Shown here in pieces: positions 12,716 to 22,928 of a DNA stretch of 64,000 nucleotides (positions within the stretch are counted from its first letter, which is position 1; every line of letters starts with the position of its first letter). The DNA comes from Cypionkella sp. (GTDB taxonomy: Bacteria; Pseudomonadota; Alphaproteobacteria; Rhodobacterales; Rhodobacteraceae). Made by a program: the position numbers and the translations under genes. Under the pieces are notes generated by a model. That model saw only the letters and a program-made list of their open reading frames with translations. It was not told where the DNA came from and did no database searches. Location of the stretch: assembly GCF_030652235.1 (NCBI RefSeq), contig NZ_JAUSBA010000035.1:1-64000 (forward strand), read 5' to 3'.

Positions 12716-12930
12716 GACGAAGGGCAGATCATTGGTCTATCGACCAGCAGCCTGGATGAGCGGACAAGTGCCATAGCCCATCAGCGACACCCTCGCGCTG
12801 AAGGAATGTGCGGCGCGGATGGCGGCTTTCCGCCCGATACGATTTATCAGCACATAAACGGTGGTCGATGTTACGTTGCCGTGTCGGCAAAGCCGAGGAC
12901 GTGGCGGGCTTGGCGGACAGGATAGAAGCC

Positions 12931-13563
12931 ATGACCATAGAAACACTTCCCGCCCTTCGTCCTACGCGTGCGCCTTGGAACAAAGGACGCATCGTTGGCC
13001 AGAAACGCCCCCTGCTGCCGAAACATGTCTGGTCCATCCGAGTCCGGCTGGAAATGGCCGACAATAGGCGCGATCTTGCGCTGTTCAACATGGCCATTGA
13101 TTGCAAGCTCCGGGGCTGCGATCTGGTCTGCCTGAAGGTGAACGATGTTTACGCCGCAGGCCGCGTCAAGGAACGCGCCTCGGTGACGCAAAGCAAGACA
13201 CGCAAGCCGGTCCGCTTTGAGATCACCGAAACCACGCGACTGTCGGTGGAGCGTTGGATCAAAGATCCAGAAATGATCGGTTGCGAATATCTTTGGCCCA
13301 GCCGTGTCCATGCTAGCCCGCATCTGTCGACACGCCAATATGCGCGGATCATGCGCGACTGGGTTCTCTCGATCGGGCTAGAACCGAGCGCCTATGGGAC
13401 CCATTCGATGCGACGCACGAAGGTTGCCCAGATTTACAAGAAGACCGGCAACCTGCGCGCTGTTCAACTTTTGCTCGGGCATACCAAGATGGACAGCACG
13501 GTTCGCTATCTAGGGGTCGACCTGGACGACGCGCTGTCGTTGTCAGAAGGGATCGATCTGTAA
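12931..13563 (+). CDS. Short tyrosine recombinase / integrase
   Basis: 210 residues, about the catalytic domain alone. All expected residues are visible: Arg61 (KLRGCD), Lys89 (TQSKT), His158-x-x-Arg161 (THSMRR), His184 (LLGHTK) and the nucleophile Tyr193 (VRYLGV). Most of the usual arm- and core-binding N-terminal domain is absent, which is normal for a group of short integrases common on Rhodobacteraceae plasmids and islands. Start ATG 12931 is chosen; an upstream in-frame ATG at 12808 adds a non-conserved extension. It may mark an accessory-module boundary. Confidence 0.82.
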   Translation: MTIETLPALRPTRAPWNKGRIVGQKRPLLPKHVWSIRVRLEMADNRRDLALFNMAIDCKLRGCDLVCLKVNDVYAAGRVKERASVTQSKTRKPVRFEITETTRLSVERWIKDPEMIGCEYLWPSRVHASPHLSTRQYARIMRDWVLSIGLEPSAYGTHSMRRTKVAQIYKKTGNLRAVQLLLGHTKMDSTVRYLGVDLDDALSLSEGIDL

Positions 13564-13953: not shown

Positions 13954-14163
13954 TCAGCGCAGCCGCTTCTTCATGCGCTCGATCTGTTCGGGCGTGCCCT
14001 CGAAGGTGTATCCGTCGCGGGTCTTCTTCATCCGCACGCCGGGACCGGCAGCCTTTTTCAGGTTGTCTTCGAGCTGCTTCTCCATGCTGCGCGTCAGCTC
14101 TCGCTGAAGCTGCGATGCGGACGTGATCTTGCGGCCATTGAACCGCATTTCGATGCCAGCCAT
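13954..14163 (-). CDS. Small basic hypothetical protein
   Basis: 69 residues, beginning MAGIEMRFNGRKITSASQLQ and rich in Lys/Arg, with a likely amphipathic helix (SMEKQLEDNLKKAA) and an EQIERMKKRLR tail. AAAGG precedes the start. It lies 17 bases after the DUF2188-like gene in the same direction, so the two probably form an operon. The function is not recognised; basic charge allows nucleic-acid binding, which is only a guess. Confidence 0.7.
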   Translation of the reverse strand: MAGIEMRFNGRKITSASQLQRELTRSMEKQLEDNLKKAAGPGVRMKKTRDGYTFEGTPEQIERMKKRLR

Positions 14164-14180
14164 TGGCTTTTCCTTTCGTG

Positions 14181-14405
14181 TCAGCCCTTCGGAGGGAAGG
14201 GATCGTTGCCGTAGGTGTTACGCTCGCGGATGCGACCGTTCTCGCCGTGGATCAGCATCTCGCTGCCCTGGCGAATAGCGGATTCCCGCGCGGCCGCGAT
14301 GGCCTCGCGCTGTGTGCCATGGACGGAAGACGCGCGCTCATTGCCCGCCCCTTTCACTGCCCAACCGTTCTCATGCGGCACAACATGTTGATTTTTCTTA
14401 GACAT
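14181..14405 (-). CDS. DUF2188-type small protein
   Basis: 74 residues. KNQHVVPHENGWAVKGAGN followed by REAIAAARESAIRQGSEMLI and the ending HGENGRIRERNTYGNDPFPP match the DUF2188 pattern, a small beta-beta-alpha fold of unknown role. The start at 14405 (MSKKNQ) has GAGG seven bases upstream and is preferred to the ATG at 14417. The gene is divergent from the XRE-ImmA gene. Many DUF2188 genes sit in mobile or accessory DNA. Confidence 0.8.
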   Translation of the reverse strand: MSKKNQHVVPHENGWAVKGAGNERASSVHGTQREAIAAARESAIRQGSEMLIHGENGRIRERNTYGNDPFPPKG

Positions 14406-14429
14406 TTCAAACCTCATATGTCGATTTCG

Positions 14430-14459
14430 GTTGACGATTCGACAACCTTGTGTTTATAT
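14430..14459 (+). promoter_or_regulatory. Promoter and operator of the XRE-ImmA/PIN pair
   Basis: TTGACG (14431-14436) and TTATAT (14454-14459) are 17 bases apart. The -35 box lies inside GTTGACGATTCGACAAC (14430-14446), an imperfect palindrome with one mismatched pair and a three-base centre. That is a natural place for the XRE protein to repress its own transcription. Confidence 0.6.
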
Positions 14460-14512
14460 ATAAAGCAATTAATGGCGCTTATCAACCAAACAATAACCGC
14501 CGGGAGAGGACC

Positions 14513-15592
14513 ATGTTCGGACAAAGACTGCGACTTGCCCGCAAGCGGGCGGGTCTATCCATGCAAGCGCTCGCGGAGCGCGTAACCCCAAGCGTGTCAG
14601 CGCAGGCCATCAGCAAATACGAGGCGGACAAGATGATGCCGTCCTCATCGGTGCTGGTCGGCCTCGGCAAAGCGCTCGGCGTGTCGCTCGACTTCCTGCT
14701 CGGCGGACAGGTCGAGGCCCTGGAAAGCGTCGAGTGGCGGAAGAACTCGACCGCCTCGGCGCAGGATCGGGCGATGGCCGAAGCCATCGTGATCGAGAAA
14801 CTCGAAGATTATCTCGCCATCGAGGACATCCTCGATCTGCACGCCGCCGAAGACCCCTTTGCCGCGCTGCGCGTGGATCAGGTCGCCGATGAGGAGGCCA
14901 TCGACGCCAAGGCGCGGGAAGTGCGGCGGGAGTGGAAGCTTGGGATCGACCCGATCCCGAGTATGACCGCCCTGCTCGAAGACAAGGGACTCAAGGTCAT
15001 CGAGGCCGACCTTCCCGAACGGATCAACGGGCTGGCCTGTCATGTCGAACGGGCGGAAGGCGCGCCGACTGAAGTGATCGTCGTCTCGCGGCACACCAAT
15101 GTCGAGCGCAAGCGCTTCAACCTCGCTCATGAGCTCGCGCACCGCATCATCATCGAAACCGGCAATGCCGCGCTGAAGAAGGAACCCTCCATGCACCGCT
15201 TTGCGGGGGCTTTTCTGATTCCGCGCGAACACCTCGAAGCGGAAGCGGGTAAGAACCGCCACGGCATGACCTGGATCGAGATCATGCGGCTCAAGCGCAC
15301 CTATGGCGTCTCCGCCGCCGCGATGCTCGTGCGCCTCGGCCAGGTGGGCATCCTGTCGAAAAGCGCCGTGGAATATGCTTTCAAGACCTATGCGCGCGGC
15401 TGGCGGCGCGAGGAACCGCAGCCTATCGGTCCCGGCGAGGGGTTCGCGGCTTTCGAGAAGCCGCAGCGCTTCGAACGCCTCGTTTGGCGCGCTCTGGGCG
15501 AAGAGATGATTTCGCCTGTGCGGGCGGCACAGATGCTCGGCCTCCCTTTGAGCGTTATCGAGCGCGACATCAGGGGGCCGCGTGTCCAGTGA
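14513..15592 (+). CDS. XRE helix-turn-helix plus ImmA/IrrE metallopeptidase fusion (antitoxin-like)
   Basis: 359 residues. Residues 1-65 are an XRE DNA-binding domain (RLRLARKRAGLSMQALAERV, ISKYEADKMMPSSSVL). Residues about 150-290 are an ImmA/IrrE (COG2856) zincin with the motif NLAHELAHRI, i.e. HExxH, and a downstream FAGAFLIPREHL. The C-terminal 80 residues are not assigned. Fusions of this type are often the regulatory partner of toxin-antitoxin units. The stop overlaps the PIN gene start, so expression is coupled. GGGAGAGG precedes ATG 14513; an upstream ATG at 14450 is rejected. Confidence 0.88.
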   Translation: MFGQRLRLARKRAGLSMQALAERVTPSVSAQAISKYEADKMMPSSSVLVGLGKALGVSLDFLLGGQVEALESVEWRKNSTASAQDRAMAEAIVIEKLEDYLAIEDILDLHAAEDPFAALRVDQVADEEAIDAKAREVRREWKLGIDPIPSMTALLEDKGLKVIEADLPERINGLACHVERAEGAPTEVIVVSRHTNVERKRFNLAHELAHRIIIETGNAALKKEPSMHRFAGAFLIPREHLEAEAGKNRHGMTWIEIMRLKRTYGVSAAAMLVRLGQVGILSKSAVEYAFKTYARGWRREEPQPIGPGEGFAAFEKPQRFERLVWRALGEEMISPVRAAQMLGLPLSVIERDIRGPRVQ

Positions 15593-16095
15593 CCTGTGTT
15601 GTCGTCAATGATGCGTCCTGTCTGATCGACTTGAGAAAGGGGGAGTTGCTGCATGTCCTGTTGCGGCTGCCCTATCGATTCATCGTTCCCCTACCGATCC
15701 GCGAGGAGGAACTCCTCGACTTCACGGCGCAGGAATGGCGAATGCTCGAAGACAGCGGCCTCGTCACCTATGACCTGCCAAGTGAAGAAGTCAGTCAGGT
15801 ATTTGCGCTGAAGCGCGAGCATAGCCGCCTGTCGGCCAATGACTGCTTCGCCCTTGTCACGACAACCTGCCAGGAGAACGGAATCCTCCTCACGGGTGAC
15901 AATCTCTTGCGGAAGGTGGCCACGGCGCGGGCCGTGCGCGTTCATGGCGTTCTCTGGATCATTGACGAGCTGCACGCTGCCGAAGTCTGCGAGGTCGAGC
16001 TTCTCATCTCCGCCCTGCAAGTCTGGCGGGCGGATGATGCGGTATTCCTGCCCCCTGCTGAGATCGACAAGCGGCTGCGCCGCTTAACAGAGTGA
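15589..16095 (+). CDS. PIN-domain protein (putative toxin of the XRE-ImmA pair)
   Basis: 168 residues from a GTG that overlaps the preceding TGA (GTGA). PIN acidic residues are in place: Asp8 (VVVNDASCLIDL), Glu40/41, Asp85 (LSANDCFAL) and Asp104 (LLTGDNLLRKVA). PIN proteins are Mg-dependent ribonucleases and the usual toxins of VapBC-like units. With an XRE-ImmA partner this would be a variant unit, possibly with the peptidase controlling the regulator. Activity and partner roles are inferred from order and motifs. Confidence 0.8.
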   Translation: MTCVVVNDASCLIDLRKGELLHVLLRLPYRFIVPLPIREEELLDFTAQEWRMLEDSGLVTYDLPSEEVSQVFALKREHSRLSANDCFALVTTTCQENGILLTGDNLLRKVATARAVRVHGVLWIIDELHAAEVCEVELLISALQVWRADDAVFLPPAEIDKRLRRLTE

Positions 16096-16417
16096 CACAA
16101 TCTGTTCACCCGCCTTGGCCTGCTCGGACGGGCGCATAGGCCCTTATCTGTCAAAGGTCGAACATCTCCAAGGTCCGTTTTTGCGATGGTCGAAGAATCT
16201 ATTGCGAACGCAGCGAAGGTCAGCTCCCCGCCCTTTTTGTTAAACGTTACTTCCGGCCCTTTGCAGACACTCGACATGTGCGATTGCTGCGCGGCGGCGT
16301 TCCCGGAAGCGGTCGTTCGACGTGCGATGTAGAAATTCGTCCGCGCGATGCTCCGTATTTGGGACGCTGTTGCCGTTCGCGGCGCCTGCACCCTAATAGG
16401 AGCCAGCTCTGGCGTGG
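16096..16417. other. Intergenic region with a dispersed repeat copy
   Basis: No gene seen in 322 bases between convergent genes. The string GCGGCGTTCCCGGAAGCGG and following CGTTC (16296-16318) closely matches a sequence at 24530-24553, suggesting a short dispersed repeat. Confidence 0.4.
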
Positions 16418-16756
16418 CTAATCACACCACTGAACCCGACCCCGCCGCACCCAAAAGTGCGACCGGCATCCAGTCTTTCGCCACACGGAGGGAGACAATG
16501 TCGGCCTTCTCTCTCGATCAGCACTAACGTCCCAGCGAGGCTTGGCCTCGGCGATGACTAGGAGTTCGATGATATCACCGCAACCACAAGGGCAGCGCAT
16601 TCCGACGCACCAGTTCTCGTCGTCTTCGCGCGCCAGCAAGAGATCTCGGCGCGGCATGAATTGAGGCAGACTGTCCCCTTCGATTATGATCAATCGCCGC
16701 GCGGGTCCGAACCGTGCCCAAACGTCGCGCCACCACTTCCGAACGCCCATCATCAA
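16418..16756 (-). CDS. DUF6527-like zinc-ribbon protein of the ubiquitin-like operon
   Basis: 112 residues. A Cys/His cluster (CPCGCG at 55-60, then CRSHFW with Cys97 and His100) and the conserved RPTLSPSVW (94-102) point to a small metal-binding domain. Proteins of this kind are repeatedly found last in bacterial operons carrying multi-ubiquitin, E1 and E2 domains; their activity is not established. Its ATG overlaps the E1 stop (ATGA), so it is translationally coupled to it. Confidence 0.75.
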   Translation of the reverse strand: MMMGVRKWWRDVWARFGPARRLIIIEGDSLPQFMPRRDLLLAREDDENWCVGMRCPCGCGDIIELLVIAEAKPRWDVSADRERRPTLSPSVWRKTGCRSHFWVRRGRVQWCD

Positions 16757-18147
16757 TCCGGCCTCCGCTGCTTAAGTAGTGGAAGGCCAAGCAGCGGCTC
16801 CAGATCACCGCGCGCTAAGAGGCCAAGATTGGATCTGGGAAATGCTGCTTCCGCAGTGAACTCTTCTTCACCCGCAGCCAAGCTGAACTCCGTGCGGGCA
16901 TAATTCCCGTTGGGGTCCAAGCGGAAAGGGTAAGCCCGCGCGATGAACTCATTCATCGCTGCCGTCGCGACCCGCATATTGAGCGTAATCACTGACGGGG
17001 CCTCTTCGATCATGCCTTTGATATAACCCGCTTCTAGTTCGTATTGGTGCGCGCCAGGAGCAGTGCGGCGGAGGTACTCCGCGCGTAAGCTGGCGGGTGA
17101 GTACACTTCACGATCCCGCAACGTGGAACCGCCTGGCTGAACGTAATCCACCCGTCCGCATACATCTGCGATCGCCATTCCTCGTGCAGCTTTGCGGAGT
17201 GGGATCACCACGCCCATGTCGAAGAGTGGCAGCAAAAACGCTTGAGCGATGAAGTCCGCCATCTGGCGAGCTTCAAGCGTATCAACGCAGCAGAACAGCA
17301 CATCGGCCTGACTGGCCGACAGCACCGCCTCTCGGCTCGTGATGGATGCCGGTATGGCCATCGCGACACCTTCGCCGCGATGACGGGCGACTGCGGAAGC
17401 GAACATTTCGACCTTGAGCCGACGCTCCTCGGCATCAGCCTGGGTGGCGTTCAAAATACGATTCAGATTGTGGGGTTCGATGCGGTCGAAGTCGATCAGG
17501 TCAACTCTGCCGAAGCCTAGACGGGCGGCTTGCTCACCTATGATCGAGCCAGTGCCTGAAACCCCGATCACGACAGCACGCAGTCGCCCCAGCTCGCGGG
17601 TCATACCGCTTGTGAATGCGACGGGCCGATCAGTGACTCTGGACGGTGGATGCTCGTTAGCCCAGATTAGGTCGATGTCATCACCGATCACTGACACGAG
17701 ATTAATTGGCCAACACGTTCCGTCCTGGTCGTACAGGCGCCCGCGCACCCGCCCATCCGGGATCATGATGGCGGAACCGTGAAGCGAGCCGAGGGCCTCA
17801 AACAGGCCAGGGATCACCCGAGCGTCGCTTTGGTCGTCGGCTCCGGAGAAGTCGAACAGGCCGCCGGGATGGGAGTGGATCAAAATGAGGGACAGATCCT
17901 CCGCCTCGGCCAGATCGATCGCCTCTTCGATCCAGAGGCCAGGCCAAACAATGCGGTTGGGTTCACGCAGCGCACAGTCATCATAAGGCACGAGGACAGC
18001 CTTTCGGACCAGTAGGCGCTGACGAGGGCCTGGCACACGGGCGCAGACAAGGATTGCCGCGGCCTCATAGCCATCGCCAGGGAAGAGATGCCGGCGGACG
18101 CAATTAAGTGTCGCTCCGGCGAAGCTGAGCGTCCAGTTCGGCATCAT
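16753..18147 (-). CDS. JAB/JAMM peptidase fused to ThiF/E1-like activating enzyme
   Basis: 464 residues. Residues 1-150 are a JAB/JAMM isopeptidase domain with the zinc set intact: Glu28, His91-x-His93, then Ser101-x-x-Asp104. Residues 190-460 are an E1/ThiF adenylating domain with the nucleotide loop GVSGTGSIIG (195-204), DLIDFDRIEPHNLNR (216-230) and FCCVDTLEARQ (285-295). In many related E1 proteins PGG is followed by a Cys-rich loop; here it is P338-G-G-S-T-L, so a Ser or Thr stands where a catalytic Cys might be expected. The likely role is to activate and process the ubiquitin-like protein of the previous gene, with which it overlaps by four bases (ATGA). Start 18147 is chosen from that overlap; an ATG further upstream (18222) lies inside the neighbour. 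Confidence 0.88.
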   Translation of the reverse strand: MMPNWTLSFAGATLNCVRRHLFPGDGYEAAAILVCARVPGPRQRLLVRKAVLVPYDDCALREPNRIVWPGLWIEEAIDLAEAEDLSLILIHSHPGGLFDFSGADDQSDARVIPGLFEALGSLHGSAIMIPDGRVRGRLYDQDGTCWPINLVSVIGDDIDLIWANEHPPSRVTDRPVAFTSGMTRELGRLRAVVIGVSGTGSIIGEQAARLGFGRVDLIDFDRIEPHNLNRILNATQADAEERRLKVEMFASAVARHRGEGVAMAIPASITSREAVLSASQADVLFCCVDTLEARQMADFIAQAFLLPLFDMGVVIPLRKAARGMAIADVCGRVDYVQPGGSTLRDREVYSPASLRAEYLRRTAPGAHQYELEAGYIKGMIEEAPSVITLNMRVATAAMNEFIARAYPFRLDPNGNYARTEFSLAAGEEEFTAEAAFPRSNLGLLARGDLEPLLGLPLLKQRRPD

Positions 18148-19253
18148 TCCCCGACTTCCTTGCTGAGGGCCGATTCGACGAGCGCCAGATGCGTGACGAC
18201 ATTGTCGGACGAAGGGTTCCACTCCGAACCCGGCCCACGATGTCGCGACCAGCCATTGTATGGCGCGCCCAGAATCGTCGCTGGAATGTGAGTGCAGTCG
18301 ATCACGCGGCCCGACACAAGTGCAAGCGGCGGATAGGTGTAAAACATATCGATCTGGGCTGCCGGGTAAGTCGGCGGGATCTCAAGGGCGAGGCGCGTCT
18401 GAGTAACGATGAATCCGGCTGGAACGGGATAGTGGTGGATGACCAGCCAACGCCTCCCCCCGTCATTCACTGTCTCCCACTTAAGGCCGGTGCAATCGAG
18501 ATAGGCTTCATCTACCTCCAGCACGTCGAAGTCCCGGTGAGGCGCCGGAGGCGCCTCACCGTTGTTAACTTCCTTCGGCGTCAGGCGGATCTTCTCGATG
18601 CCCGGGGTGCGCAGATCGACAACATCGGTCAACGCGACTTCGCGCTTCGCCTGACCCGCCACTTTCAAGAAGATGTGCCAGCTCTGGGCGACATCGAAGC
18701 CGGCCCTGATCATCGCGTCGCTGACGACGATGGTCGGCGTGTCGGACACGATGGTCACACCCTGAATATTGAGCTTCCAGGACGGCTTCCGGCCTACGAA
18801 AGCTTCGACCCCGCGCCCGTCCAGATCAACCAGGTCCTGATCACCAATCTCGCTATCGGGTTCATCAACCCGCTCGAGGTACACCGCGACGCCATCAGGC
18901 AGCTGACCGAGCTTGCGAACGATAGCGCCCGAGACGATGCGGCACGGCCACTGGAAGCGCTGACCGTCGATCGTGATGAAGTAGTCGCGATCAGTCTCGA
19001 CGATCACGAACCGGCCATCGGCACGTTTCAGGTCCACGGTCTCGCTCGGGCGAACATCCTCAAGTTCGCCGTCTGCAAGCACCTGCAGCACAACGGCGTG
19101 CTGGTTCGGCTTGAAGCCAGCCGCAGCGGCGAGCTGGGCGCCGGTCGGCGTGAGGTCGTCGATCAGCACGTTTCGGTAGGTCAGGGTCGCATCCGCAACC
19201 TCGATGCGGCGGTGCTTGCCGCGATCCGCGGTATCTTCACTCAACTCAGTCAT
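18144..19253 (-). CDS. Triple ubiquitin-like (multiubiquitin) protein fused to an E2-like domain
   Basis: 369 residues. Three successive beta-grasp ubiquitin-like units are visible at about 15-90 (ending RFVIVETDR), 90-156 (ending VEAFVGRK) and 157-235 (ending EKIRLTPKEV). After a short linker, residues 241-369 form a prokaryotic E2-family-E type domain (VLEVDEAYLDCTGLKWE, EIPPTYPAAQIDMFYTYPPL, PYNGWSRHRGPGSEW). Such Ubl-E2 genes with an E1-JAB gene constitute bacterial ubiquitin-like conjugation operons described by comparative genomics and linked to phage defence. The Ubls lack a terminal Gly-Gly because the E2 follows. GGAG lies before ATG 19253. Confidence 0.85.
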   Translation of the reverse strand: MTELSEDTADRGKHRRIEVADATLTYRNVLIDDLTPTGAQLAAAAGFKPNQHAVVLQVLADGELEDVRPSETVDLKRADGRFVIVETDRDYFITIDGQRFQWPCRIVSGAIVRKLGQLPDGVAVYLERVDEPDSEIGDQDLVDLDGRGVEAFVGRKPSWKLNIQGVTIVSDTPTIVVSDAMIRAGFDVAQSWHIFLKVAGQAKREVALTDVVDLRTPGIEKIRLTPKEVNNGEAPPAPHRDFDVLEVDEAYLDCTGLKWETVNDGGRRWLVIHHYPVPAGFIVTQTRLALEIPPTYPAAQIDMFYTYPPLALVSGRVIDCTHIPATILGAPYNGWSRHRGPGSEWNPSSDNVVTHLALVESALSKEVGE

Positions 19254-19292
19254 TTCACACTCCAGCTTTTCCGGCCAATCGCCGATGTCGCT

Positions 19293-19321
19293 AAAATGGG
19301 AATGCGTGCTAAGTATGTCAA
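19293..19321 (-). promoter_or_regulatory. Promoter of the ubiquitin-like operon
   Basis: On the minus strand a consensus TTGACA (19316-19321) is 17 bases from CATTTT (19293-19298), upstream of the Ubl-E2 start. Confidence 0.55.
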
Positions 19322-19343
19322 GCATTAACTTTGCTCGCTTGAC
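19317..19343. promoter_or_regulatory. Inverted repeat between two divergent promoters (candidate XRE operator)
   Basis: GTCAAGC (19317-19323) and GCTTGAC (19337-19343) are perfect inverted arms 13 bases apart. Each arm covers most of one of the two opposing -35 boxes, so one bound repressor could shut both promoters. Confidence 0.6.
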
Positions 19344-19367
19344 GAACTTATCAGGGTAGCCGATACT
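19339..19367 (+). promoter_or_regulatory. Promoter of the XRE/ImmA genes
   Basis: TTGACG (19339-19344) and GATACT (19362-19367), 17 bases apart, place the start about 35 bases before the XRE ATG. Confidence 0.6.
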
Positions 19368-19408
19368 CTACACGCCGGACTCCGTGTCCGGTTCGCGGAG
19401 GAGCCTGC

Positions 19409-19789
19409 ATGACCGATGATGAAACTGATCAAACCGCCCGGCCAACCAACCTCGGCCAGATCATCAAGAAGGCCCGTACCGATCTTCAGATGTCGCAACG
19501 CGATGTCGAGGAGGCGACCGGCAAAGAGATTTCGAATGCCTACTTGAGCCAATTGGAGAGCGGAAAAATCACCAAACCCTCTCCGCACATCCTATATACC
19601 CTCTCGACCGTCTTGGCGGTCCCTTACGAGACGCTGATGGAGCGAGCGGGCTACATCGTGCCGTCGGCTCAACGCCCTGACGACGTCAAGCATGGGCGGG
19701 CCGCAACGTTCGCGGTCGATAATCTAACGGCCGATGAGGAAGCCGCCCTCTTGGACTACCTCGCATACCTACGTACCAAAAAGGGCTGA
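19409..19789 (+). CDS. XRE-family transcriptional regulator
   Basis: 126 residues with an XRE/cro helix-turn-helix (LGQIIKKARTDLQMSQRDVE, NAYLSQLESGKITKPSPHIL; residues 13-80) and an acidic C-terminal tail that may contact the ImmA partner. GGAGGAG lies before ATG 19409. It is divergent from the ubiquitin-like operon across 155 bases and followed two bases later by the ImmA gene. A role as repressor of both directions is inferred from the shared operator-like repeat. Confidence 0.88.
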   Translation: MTDDETDQTARPTNLGQIIKKARTDLQMSQRDVEEATGKEISNAYLSQLESGKITKPSPHILYTLSTVLAVPYETLMERAGYIVPSAQRPDDVKHGRAATFAVDNLTADEEAALLDYLAYLRTKKG

Positions 19790-19791
19790 TC

Positions 19792-20718
19792 ATGCGGCGA
19801 CCGGACGACTGTAGCTTAACCCCAAGTCAGCTCACCCGCGTTCGCGCCGAGGCCGAGCGCGCGCTGAGAGAAGCCGGCGCACTCGGGGTTTTCCCGACGC
19901 CTGTTGAGGCGATCATGACCGTTGCGAAGGTTGAAGAGGTCAAGGAAGACGTCCTTAACCCCAGCTTCATCGACAAGCTTCGCTCCAGCGCTGAGCAGGC
20001 GGGCGGTGCCCTCAAGCGCGCTGTGGGCAAAGTGATGGGCCTGTTCCACGCCAGTGCCGGTCTGCTATTCTTGGATCAAACAATGATGGCGGTGAAGAAG
20101 CGCTTCGTGCGACTACACGAGTCTGGCCACGGCTTCATGCCCTGGCAACGTCCGATGTACGCTTGGGTCGAGGACTGTGACAATGCTCTGGACCCCGATG
20201 CAGCTGAGCTTTTCGATCGCGAAGCCAACGTCTTCGCTGCCGAAGTCCTGTTCCAGCTCGACAGCTTTCGTGACATAGCCGAAGGGGAAAAGTTCAGCAT
20301 CTAGACGCCGGTCAAGCTATCGAAGAAGTTCGACGCGTCGATTTATGCGTGCGTGCGACAGTACGTATCCAAAAATCATCGCGCCTGCGCAGTCGTGGTG
20401 TTGAACATGCCCGAATTCGTTGAGGGCGATGGCTTCCGCGCCACACTAAGACGTCCCGTTCAATCTGACAGTTTCACGACAATTTTCGGCGCTCACGACT
20501 GGAAGCCTGTCTACACGCCTGATGACGATATCGGCGCGCTGATACCGATCAGTGGCCAAAGGTCATCCGGCCAAAAATCTCTTGTCCTGCTGGACCGCAA
20601 CGGCGACCGCCATGAATGCGTTGCTGAGTCCTTTACACAGACCCACCAAGTCTTTGTTCTCATCCATGTGATAAAAACGCTAGCCGCGCCGCGACCTATT
20701 TTCCTGACAGCGGTTTAG
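19792..20718 (+). pseudogene. ImmA/IrrE-type metallopeptidase interrupted by an in-frame amber stop
   Basis: The first part, 170 residues, is an ImmA/IrrE zincin with VRLHESGHGFMPWQ (HExxH) and a downstream helix DREANVFAAEVLFQ. It stops at TAG 20302-20304 after EKFSI. The same frame then continues for 138 codons with family-like sequence (LSKKFDASIYACVRQYV, RACAVVVLNMPEF) to a TAG at 20718. The intact protein would be about 308 residues. No frameshift is needed; a single base change explains the break. The truncated product keeps the HExxH helix and may retain activity, or a suppressor tRNA could read through. Confidence 0.8.
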
Positions 20719-20857
20719 ACTGCCTCCGCAAGCACCGCAACTATGTCGCAGGCGGATAGGCCCAAGTCGCCTTGATCCGTTTTTAGTTGCCCGCCTCGGG
20801 TTTAAGCGGTTTACCTGCATACTTAGTGACAAGATCAACCTATCGCGCAGGAACGGC
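20719..20857 (+). promoter_or_regulatory. Short gap before the HipA_2-like gene
   Basis: About 140 bases with no gene and no clear promoter hexamers. GCAGGAAC precedes the next start. Confidence 0.3.
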
Positions 20858-21655
20858 ATGGCGGAAATCAACTTCGCAACAGTGTTGCTTGGGGCGGCAG
20901 GCTTCACGGAAGGCAACGTCAACGAGACGTATCGTGGGCAGGTTTTACTTCATGGCGGAGAGATCAGGCAGGCAATAATCAAGGATCTCGATCTGATCCA
21001 GCTCTGCAACGAGCTACTCGCCTTTTGCCTGGCCCGTCGGCTTGGCCTGCCCATCCCCGACAGTTTCCTTGGGTTGGTCCGTCCCGACATACTGAGCGTG
21101 AACAAGGCACCTGCACTGCCCGATGGTTCCCGTTTGGTTTTCGTCAGCACCGATGTGAAGGTACCGAACGTCACATTTCGGCTTCGCGCGTCAACACCGA
21201 TAGGTAAACGTGCCATCATCGACCAAATCTCAAAATGGCCAGACTTAGGCAAACTCTATGCATTCGACGCTTGGATTGCCAACATTGACCGCCATTGCGG
21301 CAACCTTCTTTTCGGCAGCGTCGGGGATACATGGCTGATTGATCACGGCCATTGCTTCACTGGACCGACTTGGGGGCCATCTGATCTCGACCCCGCCAAA
21401 GAGTTTGCCAGTCGGCTGTCCGAGTGGATGACTCCTTTCCTGAGTACTGATCAAAAGGATACCCGACGCACAGAAGCGCAAGCGTTCGAGGCTGCGCTGG
21501 CGGGGTTTGATGCCGAGGAACCTACTAAGTCCAGCCGCGTGGTGGATCTGATGCCGATGAATTATGTTGACGCCCTAAAGCAGTTCCTGACGCAGCGCAG
21601 CGCTCAGGTCACTTTCCATGCCAGCAAAGCGCTTAATGTGCCGGTGATGTTATGA
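20858..21655 (+). CDS. HipA_2-like kinase-fold protein
   Basis: 265 residues resembling the short HipA-like (HipA_2) family rather than full HipA. Kinase-type landmarks are AIIKDLD (Lys42), ELLAFCLARRLGLPIPDS, the catalytic-loop-like NIDRHCGNLLF (Asp144, Asn149) and WLIDHGHCF (Asp162). HipA kinases phosphorylate translation factors to cause growth arrest; targets of HipA_2 proteins are not known to me. No HipB-like partner is adjacent, but the following gene overlaps by four bases (ATGA) and is the obvious partner. Confidence 0.8.
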   Translation: MAEINFATVLLGAAGFTEGNVNETYRGQVLLHGGEIRQAIIKDLDLIQLCNELLAFCLARRLGLPIPDSFLGLVRPDILSVNKAPALPDGSRLVFVSTDVKVPNVTFRLRASTPIGKRAIIDQISKWPDLGKLYAFDAWIANIDRHCGNLLFGSVGDTWLIDHGHCFTGPTWGPSDLDPAKEFASRLSEWMTPFLSTDQKDTRRTEAQAFEAALAGFDAEEPTKSSRVVDLMPMNYVDALKQFLTQRSAQVTFHASKALNVPVML

Positions 21656-22578
21656 CCCTTCGACTGGACTCCAGCCGCTTCCCTTCACTGAAGGAGAGCG
21701 TCCGCGCTCATTGGGCACCGATCCTGCTTGAGCCAATTTCAGGATCTGATGAGAGATTTGTTATCGGTGTTGCTGCAGCGAATGCCACTGGATTTCACGT
21801 CGAACTTGCGAACTGCCATGAAAAGATAACATGCTTCTATGGCGAAAACGCGCCTACCATCGTTAACGCAATTACCTTGGCTGGCATGTGCTTGCGTGAG
21901 GACCTGGCGGAACGGTCGATTGAGGCGCTGTTCTCCCCTGACCCTCCGGTCTCCGGTGTTACAATTGGAAGTTGTCGGGAGGCAGAAGGAGCGAGTTTAG
22001 AGGCCTTGACCCAAAGCTGGATGGCTGCGCTTTCGTCTTTGTATTCACCCCGCACCAGTCACGATGTGCAGTCCTTGACGATGTTGGCGGTAGGTGATGC
22101 CGAGGGCCAACGGGCAGGAGACCGTCTGCCCTTCTTGGTCTGCGATTTCGTCAAATCCCAACGCGAAGGCTTCGGCGAGTATTTCAGCACCGACATCAGA
22201 GAAGCGCGCGCCCGGCGTTCCAAGGGTGGAAGCCACCGCGTCGTCATTGATTTCGCGGGACCTAGGCTGGTCGCCAATTTCGGGACACTGAAAGCTGGCG
22301 CCATCACGAACTCGGTGCATCTGATCAAGCGGCGTCTATGGGATCTCAAGGTCGAGCGAGATCGGGAGCCGCACAGCATCTTGGCTAGAGCACATGAGAT
22401 GATCCTCCATCGCCCGCCGAAGGATGACCCCCAAGTTTCTGACCAACAACAAGCCAACATCAGCGAGGCGCTGGAAGACCTTGAACAGCAGGCCGATCAA
22501 GAAGAATTGCGCCTGCTTGCGCTCGATACAGTTCAGTCAATCGGCAACCGCGTTCTGCAATACGAACTGGCGGCATAA
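21652..22578 (+). CDS. Unrecognised partner of the HipA_2-like gene
   Basis: 308 residues, start overlapping the previous stop. No family recognised. The N-terminal third (IGVAAANATGFHVELAN) seems a mixed alpha/beta domain, the middle holds KGGSHRVVIDFAGPRLVANF, and the C-terminus from about 255 is a charged coiled coil (LEDLEQQADQEELRLLAL). HipA_2 genes are often paired with a DUF3037 gene of about 130 residues; this one is in the same place but more than twice as long, so it may be a divergent relative or a replacement. Confidence 0.7.
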   Translation: MTLRLDSSRFPSLKESVRAHWAPILLEPISGSDERFVIGVAAANATGFHVELANCHEKITCFYGENAPTIVNAITLAGMCLREDLAERSIEALFSPDPPVSGVTIGSCREAEGASLEALTQSWMAALSSLYSPRTSHDVQSLTMLAVGDAEGQRAGDRLPFLVCDFVKSQREGFGEYFSTDIREARARRSKGGSHRVVIDFAGPRLVANFGTLKAGAITNSVHLIKRRLWDLKVERDREPHSILARAHEMILHRPPKDDPQVSDQQQANISEALEDLEQQADQEELRLLALDTVQSIGNRVLQYELAA

Positions 22579-22928
22579 TTCCGCCAAAAGGCAGTGTTGA
22601 CACTTTGTTAATCCACAAGAAAAGCAGCACTCGCGCCCACCTCGCCGCGTGCTGCTTGAGCGATAGCTTTTCGGGTTCGCTGGAGCGACCGTGTAGCGCT
22701 GCCGTCAGGCTGCTTCCCGCCCGTTGCTCAACTCAAAGCCCCATCGACGCAGCCGGTCCTTTGCGTGCTTTTGACGCCTCGGCATCCCGGATGCACATTG
22801 TCCCCGCAGCCGCCTTTGTAAATAGATGCAACCAAAGGTCATACAAAGTGATTGATCAGGGACAAGCAATTTCTCATCCGAGACCAGCTTTAACCCAGAC
22901 GAGTGCATCGGTGCACGCTTCGCTTTCG
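22579..22928. other. Intergenic region with a terminator-like hairpin
   Basis: 350 bases without a gene. AAGCAGCAC (22623-22631) pairs with GTGCTGCTT (22650-22658) shortly after the 308-residue gene and may end that transcript. The rest shows nothing recognisable. Confidence 0.5.

What the first reader, a model, noticed from the sequence alone, without database searches (positions are those of the whole stretch)
16418..19253. Ubiquitin-like conjugation operon with a Ser/Thr in the E1 loop where Cys is often found
Three overlapping genes encode a triple Ubl-E2 fusion, a JAB-E1 fusion and a DUF6527-like protein. The JAMM motif is complete, and so is the E1 adenylation core. The PGG loop at E1 residues 338-344 reads Ser-Thr-Leu where related ThiF proteins commonly have cysteines. 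Comparative-genomic work on prokaryotic ubiquitin-like systems describes such operons, and I recall recent reports of serine-based oxyester chemistry in some of them; I cannot confirm that this branch is the same. Unusual here: all three Ubls are followed by E2 in one chain, so the Ubls have no free C-terminus unless the JAB peptidase cuts between units.
Basis: partly seen in the sequence, partly recalled or inferred. Interest (0 to 1): 0.85.

Follow-up and report, generated by a model that had tools for sequence, protein, structure and literature searches.

The report
Known bacterial ubiquitin-like conjugation operon (Bub)
This is a member of an already described family of bacterial ubiquitin-like operons, and the serine-threonine loop flagged as possible new chemistry is more likely what remains of a lost zinc-binding site.

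Summary
The minus strand at 19253-16418 encodes three Ubl domains fused to an E2-like domain, a JAB-E1 fusion and a DUF6527 protein. Solved Bub proteins match: Citrobacter BubCD (E 5e-139), a multi-ubiquitin protein (9d59, 3e-83), Citrobacter BubB (4e-31). The gene set, Ubl-E2 fusion included, was listed in 2006 as operon type 6e (passages).

I compared 41 distinct E1s. Group A (24, the window's) has no cysteine at the loop; group B (17) has CxxC there. Independently of that sorting, 16 of 17 group B and 0 of 24 group A have a second CxxC near the C-terminus, as in the four-cysteine zinc site of other E1s. Ser341 is kept in 17 of 24. The loop probably marks a lost zinc site, not a swapped catalytic cysteine.

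The E2 has no conserved cysteine (9 of 41 have none), but Ser336, His338 and Asp350 are invariant (41 of 41), a better place for serine chemistry. In 27 of 27 Ubl-E2 fusions a glycine marks the junction. A CapH/CapP-type pair diverges from the operon; its CapP frame is interrupted. The key Bub paper could not be read.

The parts
18144..19253 (-). BubA-BubB fusion: three Ubl domains (up to residue 232), then the E2-like domain. Candidate processing site Gly232|Glu233; invariant Ser336, His338, Asp350; Thr321
   Evidence: Pfam Multi_ubiq x3 and Prok-E2_E; phmmer to 9d59_A (multi-ubiquitin protein) 2.9e-83, Citrobacter BubB 9eav_D 3.6e-31, Citrobacter BubA 9ea8_B 3e-28; alignments; numbering
16753..18147 (-). 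BubC-BubD fusion: JAB/JAMM peptidase (E28, H91, H93, S101, D104), then ThiF-type E1 (R230, K245, D289); PGGSTL 338-343 at the place of the first CxxC of group B
   Evidence: Pfam; 9ea4 Citrobacter BubCD 5.3e-139; conservation
16418..16753 (-). DUF6527 zinc-ribbon-like protein, C54-P-C-G-C58 and C96-x2-H99
   Evidence: Pfam PF20137 2.1e-24; alignment of 39 loci: Cys54 39/39, Cys58 38/39, Cys96 38/39, His99 39/39
19254..19408 (.). Divergent intergenic region; inverted repeat GTCAAGC (19317-19323) / GCTTGAC (19337-19343), the first overlapping a minus-strand TTGACA: candidate operator and promoter
   Evidence: sequence; TTGACA invariant in 7 of 7 aligned loci. The consensus scan found one promoter-like site, on the plus strand, and none on the operon's strand
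19409..19789 (+). CapH-type HTH repressor
   Evidence: Pfam HTH_3 7e-11; PADLOC capH 6.3e-7, though model HTH_VI scores better, 1.4e-10
19792..20304 (+). CapP-type M78 peptidase, N-terminal part with HExxH; an in-frame stop ends it after 170 codons, and the same frame stays open downstream to about 20718
   Evidence: Pfam Peptidase_M78 5.8e-6; PADLOC capP 3.2e-7; 6 of 6 relatives compared have 307-308 aa frames
16282..22722 (.). Stretch shared at about 93% DNA identity with L005 (Oceanicella sp.) and L006 (Tropicimonas)
   Evidence: blastn; record titles

Best explanation
The window holds a Bub (bacterial ubiquitination-like) operon of the Ubl-E2-fused kind whose E1 has lost its zinc site. Proposed working: (1) a CapH-type repressor holds the divergent promoter; DNA damage activates the CapP-type peptidase, which cleaves CapH (reported for CapH/CapP elsewhere, inferred here; this copy's CapP frame is interrupted). 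(2) The Ubl3-E2 chain is cut once, after Gly232, most likely by the JAB domain, giving a three-Ubl modifier with a C-terminal Gly and a free E2. No comparable Gly separates the Ubls, so they stay together. (3) The E1 core adenylates Gly232 (core residues intact). (4) The Ubl passes to the E2, which has no conserved cysteine; the most likely acceptor is Ser336 (oxyester), helped by His338 and Asp350. (5) It is conjugated to a target amine and JAB can reverse this; the DUF6527 protein may recognise targets (suggested for the zinc-finger protein of such operons by Iyer et al. 2006). Steps 2 and 3 rest on sequence evidence, step 4 on conservation only, steps 1 and 5 on relatives. No step is shown by experiment here. 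PGGSTL is read as a lost zinc site, not the acceptor. My odds: membership 0.97, one cut after Gly232 0.85, zinc-site loss 0.85, Ser336 as acceptor 0.5.
For: phmmer to Citrobacter BubCD 5.3e-139, 9d59 multi-ubiquitin protein 2.9e-83 and Citrobacter BubB 3.6e-31; the solved Ubl chains match up to ...VNNG and BubB chain 9eae_C begins EEP, so the depositors split at the same G|E. Loci were fetched by their E1; 41 of 41 distinct ones also have an E2 hit and 39 of 41 a DUF6527 hit. Zinc site: groups were sorted by the loop (first CxxC 17 of 17 against 0 of 24 by that sorting, though the split also falls in a gap of profile scores, 338 bits and up against 225 and down); the second CxxC, not used for sorting, is in 16 of 17 and 0 of 24. 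E2: no column has Cys in more than 11 of 41, 9 of 41 domains have none; Ser336, His338, Trp345, Asp350 and Tyr296 are invariant, 41 of 41 and 40 of 40. Junction: Gly in 27 of 27 fusions; four of 14 separate-gene loci have Ubls that end exactly in EG. CapH/CapP-type pair; 219 of 544 Bub operons sit beside CapW or CapH+CapP (PMC13373217 passage).
Against: Six of the 24 group A sequences, the window included, are over 90% alike, and several others look close, so the counts overstate independence. My structure models were poor (mean pLDDT 36 and 58), and the profile search aligned eukaryotic E2s only before the active-site loop, so the place of Ser336 is inferred from motif order. The window's second zinc half has no trace, so zinc loss is inferred from relatives; in the SUMO E1 the zinc motif matters for SUMO binding (PMC12355090 passage), so the site is not merely decorative where it exists. 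Position 350 of the E1 is Ser/Thr in 24 of 24 group A, so an E1 oxyester at another residue is not excluded. Iyer et al. 2006 read this E2 as catalytically inactive. The key paper, Ye et al. 2026, could not be read.
Confidence: 0.85

Rival explanations
1. One reading: Ser341 or Thr342 of the E1 loop takes the Ubl as an oxyester in place of the usual cysteine.
For: PGGSTL is also in Citrobacter BubCD; Thr342 is Thr/Ser in 21 of 24 group A sequences.
Against: Ser341 is Ala or Pro in 7 of 24 and Thr342 Asn or Gly in 3 of 24; the cysteines that align there go with a second, distant CxxC, as in a zinc site. Group B shares the E2 motif but has no Ser/Thr at 342.
Confidence: 0.07
2. The E1 uses Ser350 (Ser or Thr in all 24 group A sequences), a few residues after the lost CxxC, as acyl acceptor before the E2.
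For: Ser/Thr in 24 of 24 group A: Thr 13, Ser 11.
Against: Asp 13, Asn 2, Ser 2 in group B, so not general; found by looking over many columns; no structure seen here places it near the adenylate.
Confidence: 0.15
3. The E2-like domain is catalytically dead, as Iyer et al. 2006 proposed: it only binds Ubl, and the E1-bound adenylate reacts directly with the target amine.
For: No conserved Cys in the E2; MoeB and ThiF, the nearest E1s after BubCD by the group B profile, work through adenylates (recalled).
Against: Ser, His, Asp and Trp in the expected active-site region are invariant in 41 of 41, more than a mere binding domain should need.
Confidence: 0.25

Closest known systems
Bub (bacterial ubiquitination-like) operons; Citrobacter BubA/BubB/BubCD chains (PDB 9ea4, 9ea5, 9ea8, 9eae, 9eav) and multi-ubiquitin protein 9d59
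   Same: Matches over nearly full length, same PGGSTL loop, WSRHR motif and NNG|E junction; same fused gene order in enterobacterial plasmid relatives L002 and L004
   Different: E1s of L002 and L004 are 52% and 50% identical to the window's (identity to the solved chains not computed); those two loci carry other regulators; here a CapH/CapP-type pair with an interrupted CapP frame
Operon type 6e of Iyer et al. 2006 (PMC1779556, passages read)
   Same: PolyUbl, E2/RWD-like domain lacking Cys and in some species fused to the polyUbl, JAB-E1, zinc-finger protein
   Different: They called the E2 inactive, whereas invariant Ser/His/Asp suggest activity; their zinc-finger signature ends H-x2-C, here C-x2-H
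Bil (bacterial ISG15-like) systems
   Same: Multi-Ubl modifier; Ubl-BilA 8u38 matches the Ubl part at 1.5e-15
   Different: Bil E1/E2 chemistry is Cys-based (recalled, not tested); this E2 lacks a conserved Cys
MoeB / ThiF adenylating enzymes
   Same: Adenylation core residues; Cys287 aligns with MoeB Cys128
   Different: CxxC pairs absent from the window's group; JAB domain fused

Membership tests
Bub operon | Multi-Ubl protein related to solved BubA | tested here: met
   Citrobacter BubA fragment 9ea8_B 3e-28; multi-ubiquitin protein 9d59_A 2.9e-83 over residues 30-256 of the 393-aa frame
Bub operon | E2-like protein related to solved BubB | tested here: met
   9eav_D E 3.6e-31; Prok-E2_E 3.5e-34
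Bub operon | JAB-E1 fusion related to solved BubCD | tested here: met
   9ea4_A E 5.3e-139 over residues 41-483 of the 489-aa frame
Bub operon | DUF6527 gene in the operon | tested here: met
   PF20137 2.1e-24; in 39 of 41 homologous loci. That it defines Bub was not read in a paper.
Bub operon | Ubl conjugation activity | not testable with these tools
   needs biochemistry
CapH/CapP regulator | HTH repressor plus M78 peptidase beside an immune-type operon | tested here: met
   PADLOC capH 6.3e-7 and capP 3.2e-7; divergent from the operon
CapH/CapP regulator | Intact CapP frame | tested here: not met
   In-frame stop after codon 170; 6 of 6 relatives open to 307-308 aa
Cys-based E1-E2 conjugation (canonical, Bil, CBASS Cap2) | Conserved catalytic Cys in the E2 | tested here: not met
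   No Cys in 9 of 41 E2 domains; best column 11 of 41
Four-cysteine E1 zinc site | Two CxxC motifs | tested here: not met
   0 of 24 group A at either position; 17 and 16 of 17 in group B. L033 and L036 of group A have CxxC elsewhere.

The most novel reading that the evidence does not exclude
Across both E1 groups the pathway has no cysteine carrier at all: the E1 only adenylates, and the Ubl is handed straight to the invariant E2 Ser336 (with His338 and Asp350) as an oxyester before conjugation. If Ye et al. 2026 already showed this, the novelty is gone; I could not read it.
Probability: 0.3. Interest if true: 0.5.

Novelty: new member of a known kind. Interest (0 to 1): 0.25.

Why it matters
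It moves the question from the E1 loop to a testable place: an E2 family without a conserved cysteine but with an invariant Ser, His and Asp. It also gives natural controls: E1s that kept or lost the CxxC pairs, and Ubls that come fused to the E2 or end at the same glycine on their own. The locus itself is an ordinary member of a described family.

Tried and rejected
Ser341/Thr342 as nucleophile: rejected on conservation and on the paired CxxC pattern. Cys286/287 as nucleophile: Cys286 is Cys in 17 of 41; Cys287 in 40 of 41, but it aligns with MoeB Cys128 beside the catalytic Asp. An E2 cysteine: none conserved. Profile search of the E2 against solved chains reached eukaryotic E2s only at E 0.1-1.7 and, in the alignments shown, not over the active-site loop. 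Viral contigs: no relative by single sequence, one by profile. E. coli genomes: no megablast match to 14000-22600. DUF6527 protein against solved chains: none at E up to 1.

Literature: Ye et al. 2026 and Gong et al. 2025 are not held; I know their titles from a reference list. Nine paper searches ran; of the papers listed, two were seen to treat Bub: PMC13373217 and PMC12687455 (passages). PMC11354881 (passages) has no 'Bub'. DUF6527 with ubiquitin gave 0 papers. So I cannot say whether the serine chemistry or the zinc loss is already in print.

Rows dropped before the counts of 41: L034 (broken copy), L010-L012 (the window itself), L017 and L018 (E1 same as L006 and L009 over the last 400 residues). 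Of 139 plasmid records with a match I fetched 20 regions, 6 from the best list and 14 from the spread list, picked by me for diversity.

Full report
What is there. The minus strand of 16418-19253 carries three genes that overlap by ATGA and TGATG: a 369-aa protein (three Multi_ubiq stretches and Prok-E2_E), a 464-aa protein (Prok-JAB and ThiF) and a 111-aa DUF6527 protein.

What it is. The JAB-E1 protein matches Citrobacter BubCD at 5.3e-139; the Ubl part matches a solved multi-ubiquitin protein (9d59) at 2.9e-83 and a Citrobacter BubA fragment (9ea8_B) at 3e-28; the E2 part matches Citrobacter BubB at 3.6e-31. Bub means bacterial ubiquitination-like. PMC13373217 (passages) speaks of 544 Bub operons, 219 of them beside CapW or CapH+CapP, and says that protection against phage has not been demonstrated; the review PMC12687455 (passages) says that such systems appear to serve mainly in phage defence. 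Iyer et al. 2006 (PMC1779556, passages) had listed the type as 6e: polyUbl, in some species fused to an E2-like domain without the cysteine; JAB-E1; and a zinc-finger protein with the signature C-x3-C-x(35-38)-H-x2-C (here C-x3-C-x37-C-x2-H). The fusion is not unusual: of 41 distinct loci 27 are fused and 14 separate. The window's own assembly has one such E1 and one DUF6527 gene.

The sample. Relatives came from plasmid records, one scan of bacterial genomes, one viral-contig hit, and genomes of the same phylum (5 of 398 with a match at 1e-30, own included) and order (15 of 390, own included). Among the window's own and 60 related genomes, 14 of them of the same genus, only the own one matched at 1e-40. 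After dropping L034, L010-L012, L017 and L018, 41 distinct E1s remain. I sorted them by the loop into group A (24, the window's) and group B (17); the same split falls in a gap of profile scores, 338 bits and more against 225 and less. Six of group A, the window included, are over 90% alike, and others, such as L021-L026 in group B, look close by eye.

The E1 loop. Where the window has P-G-G-S-T-L-R-D-R, group B has P-x-x-x-C-x-x-C: Thr342 and Asp345 stand at the two cysteines, Cys in 17 of 17. That count follows from the sorting. The independent result is a second CxxC near the C-terminus: 16 of 17 in group B (the exception, L023, diverges at its end) and 0 of 24 in group A. Two CxxC pairs form the zinc site of ThiF-type E1s (recalled for MoeB, ThiF and UBA5; for the SUMO E1 stated in PMC12355090, passage, which adds that the motif matters for SUMO binding). 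Ser341 is Ser 17, Ala 4, Pro 3 in group A; Thr342 is Thr 17, Ser 4, Asn 2, Gly 1. Against a clean dismissal, position 350 is Ser or Thr in 24 of 24 group A, and an E1 oxyester there is possible.

The E2. No alignment column has Cys in more than 11 of 41, and 9 of 41 domains have none. Tyr296, Ser336, His338, Trp345 and Asp350 are invariant in 41 of 41 and 40 of 40. By order of motifs (YP, then WSRH, then W-x-P before the last helix) Ser336 and His338 lie about where the catalytic cysteine of other E2s lies. This is inference: the profile search aligned eukaryotic E2s only around the YP region and my models were poor.

Processing. In 27 of 27 fusions a glycine stands at the junction: N-G-E in 20 of 22 group A fusions, NGD and DGE in the other two. 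Of 14 separate-gene loci, four (L035, L039, L040, L041) have a Ubl that ends exactly in EG, in nine a glycine is followed by one to three residues, and in L037 no Ubl frame was found. The solved Ubl chains end, and BubB chain 9eae_C begins, at the same place. By eye the linkers between the three Ubls show no such conserved glycine, so the unit conjugated is probably the whole triple Ubl.

Regulation and mobility. A CapH/CapP-type pair diverges from the operon. The gap holds an inverted repeat whose one arm overlaps a conserved minus-strand TTGACA; the consensus scan called no promoter on that strand. The CapP-type frame stops after 170 codons while 6 of 6 relatives run to 307-308, so damage-induced release may be impaired in this strain, unless the stop is a sequencing error. 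About 6.4 kb, 16282-22722, are shared at about 93% with L005 (Oceanicella sp.) and L006 (Tropicimonas); the window's genus is not named, but two genomes of other genera (G767, G789) carry near-identical E1 matches. This fits a mobile cassette.

Verdict. Whether that candidate is already in print I could not check.

Noticed in passing
19792-20718: CapP-type peptidase frame interrupted by an in-frame stop after 170 codons; relatives L001 and L005-L009 are open.
   Followed up: partly
20858-22578: HipA_2-like kinase gene and a 308-aa gene without Pfam match travel with the operon in 4 of 5 close relatives (L005, L006, L008, L009; not L007).
   Followed up: partly
14450-16095: HTH-M78 protein (PADLOC RmrA models, best 6.2e-47) overlapping a gene that matches PDC-S70 models at 8.3e-7: a second regulator-effector-like pair.
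   Followed up: no
12808-13563: Phage-type integrase (Pfam 3e-16) outside the shared cassette.
   Followed up: no
L030:2856-5802: A Bub operon in a viral contig between genes that look Mu-like by eye.
   Followed up: no
L034: Bub operon on an Enterobacter hormaechei IncHI2A plasmid split into several frames.
   Followed up: no
L043, L044, L046: A gene annotated as Clp protease proteolytic subunit follows the Bub operon in three Rhizobium plasmids, which may hint at a degradative link.
   Followed up: no
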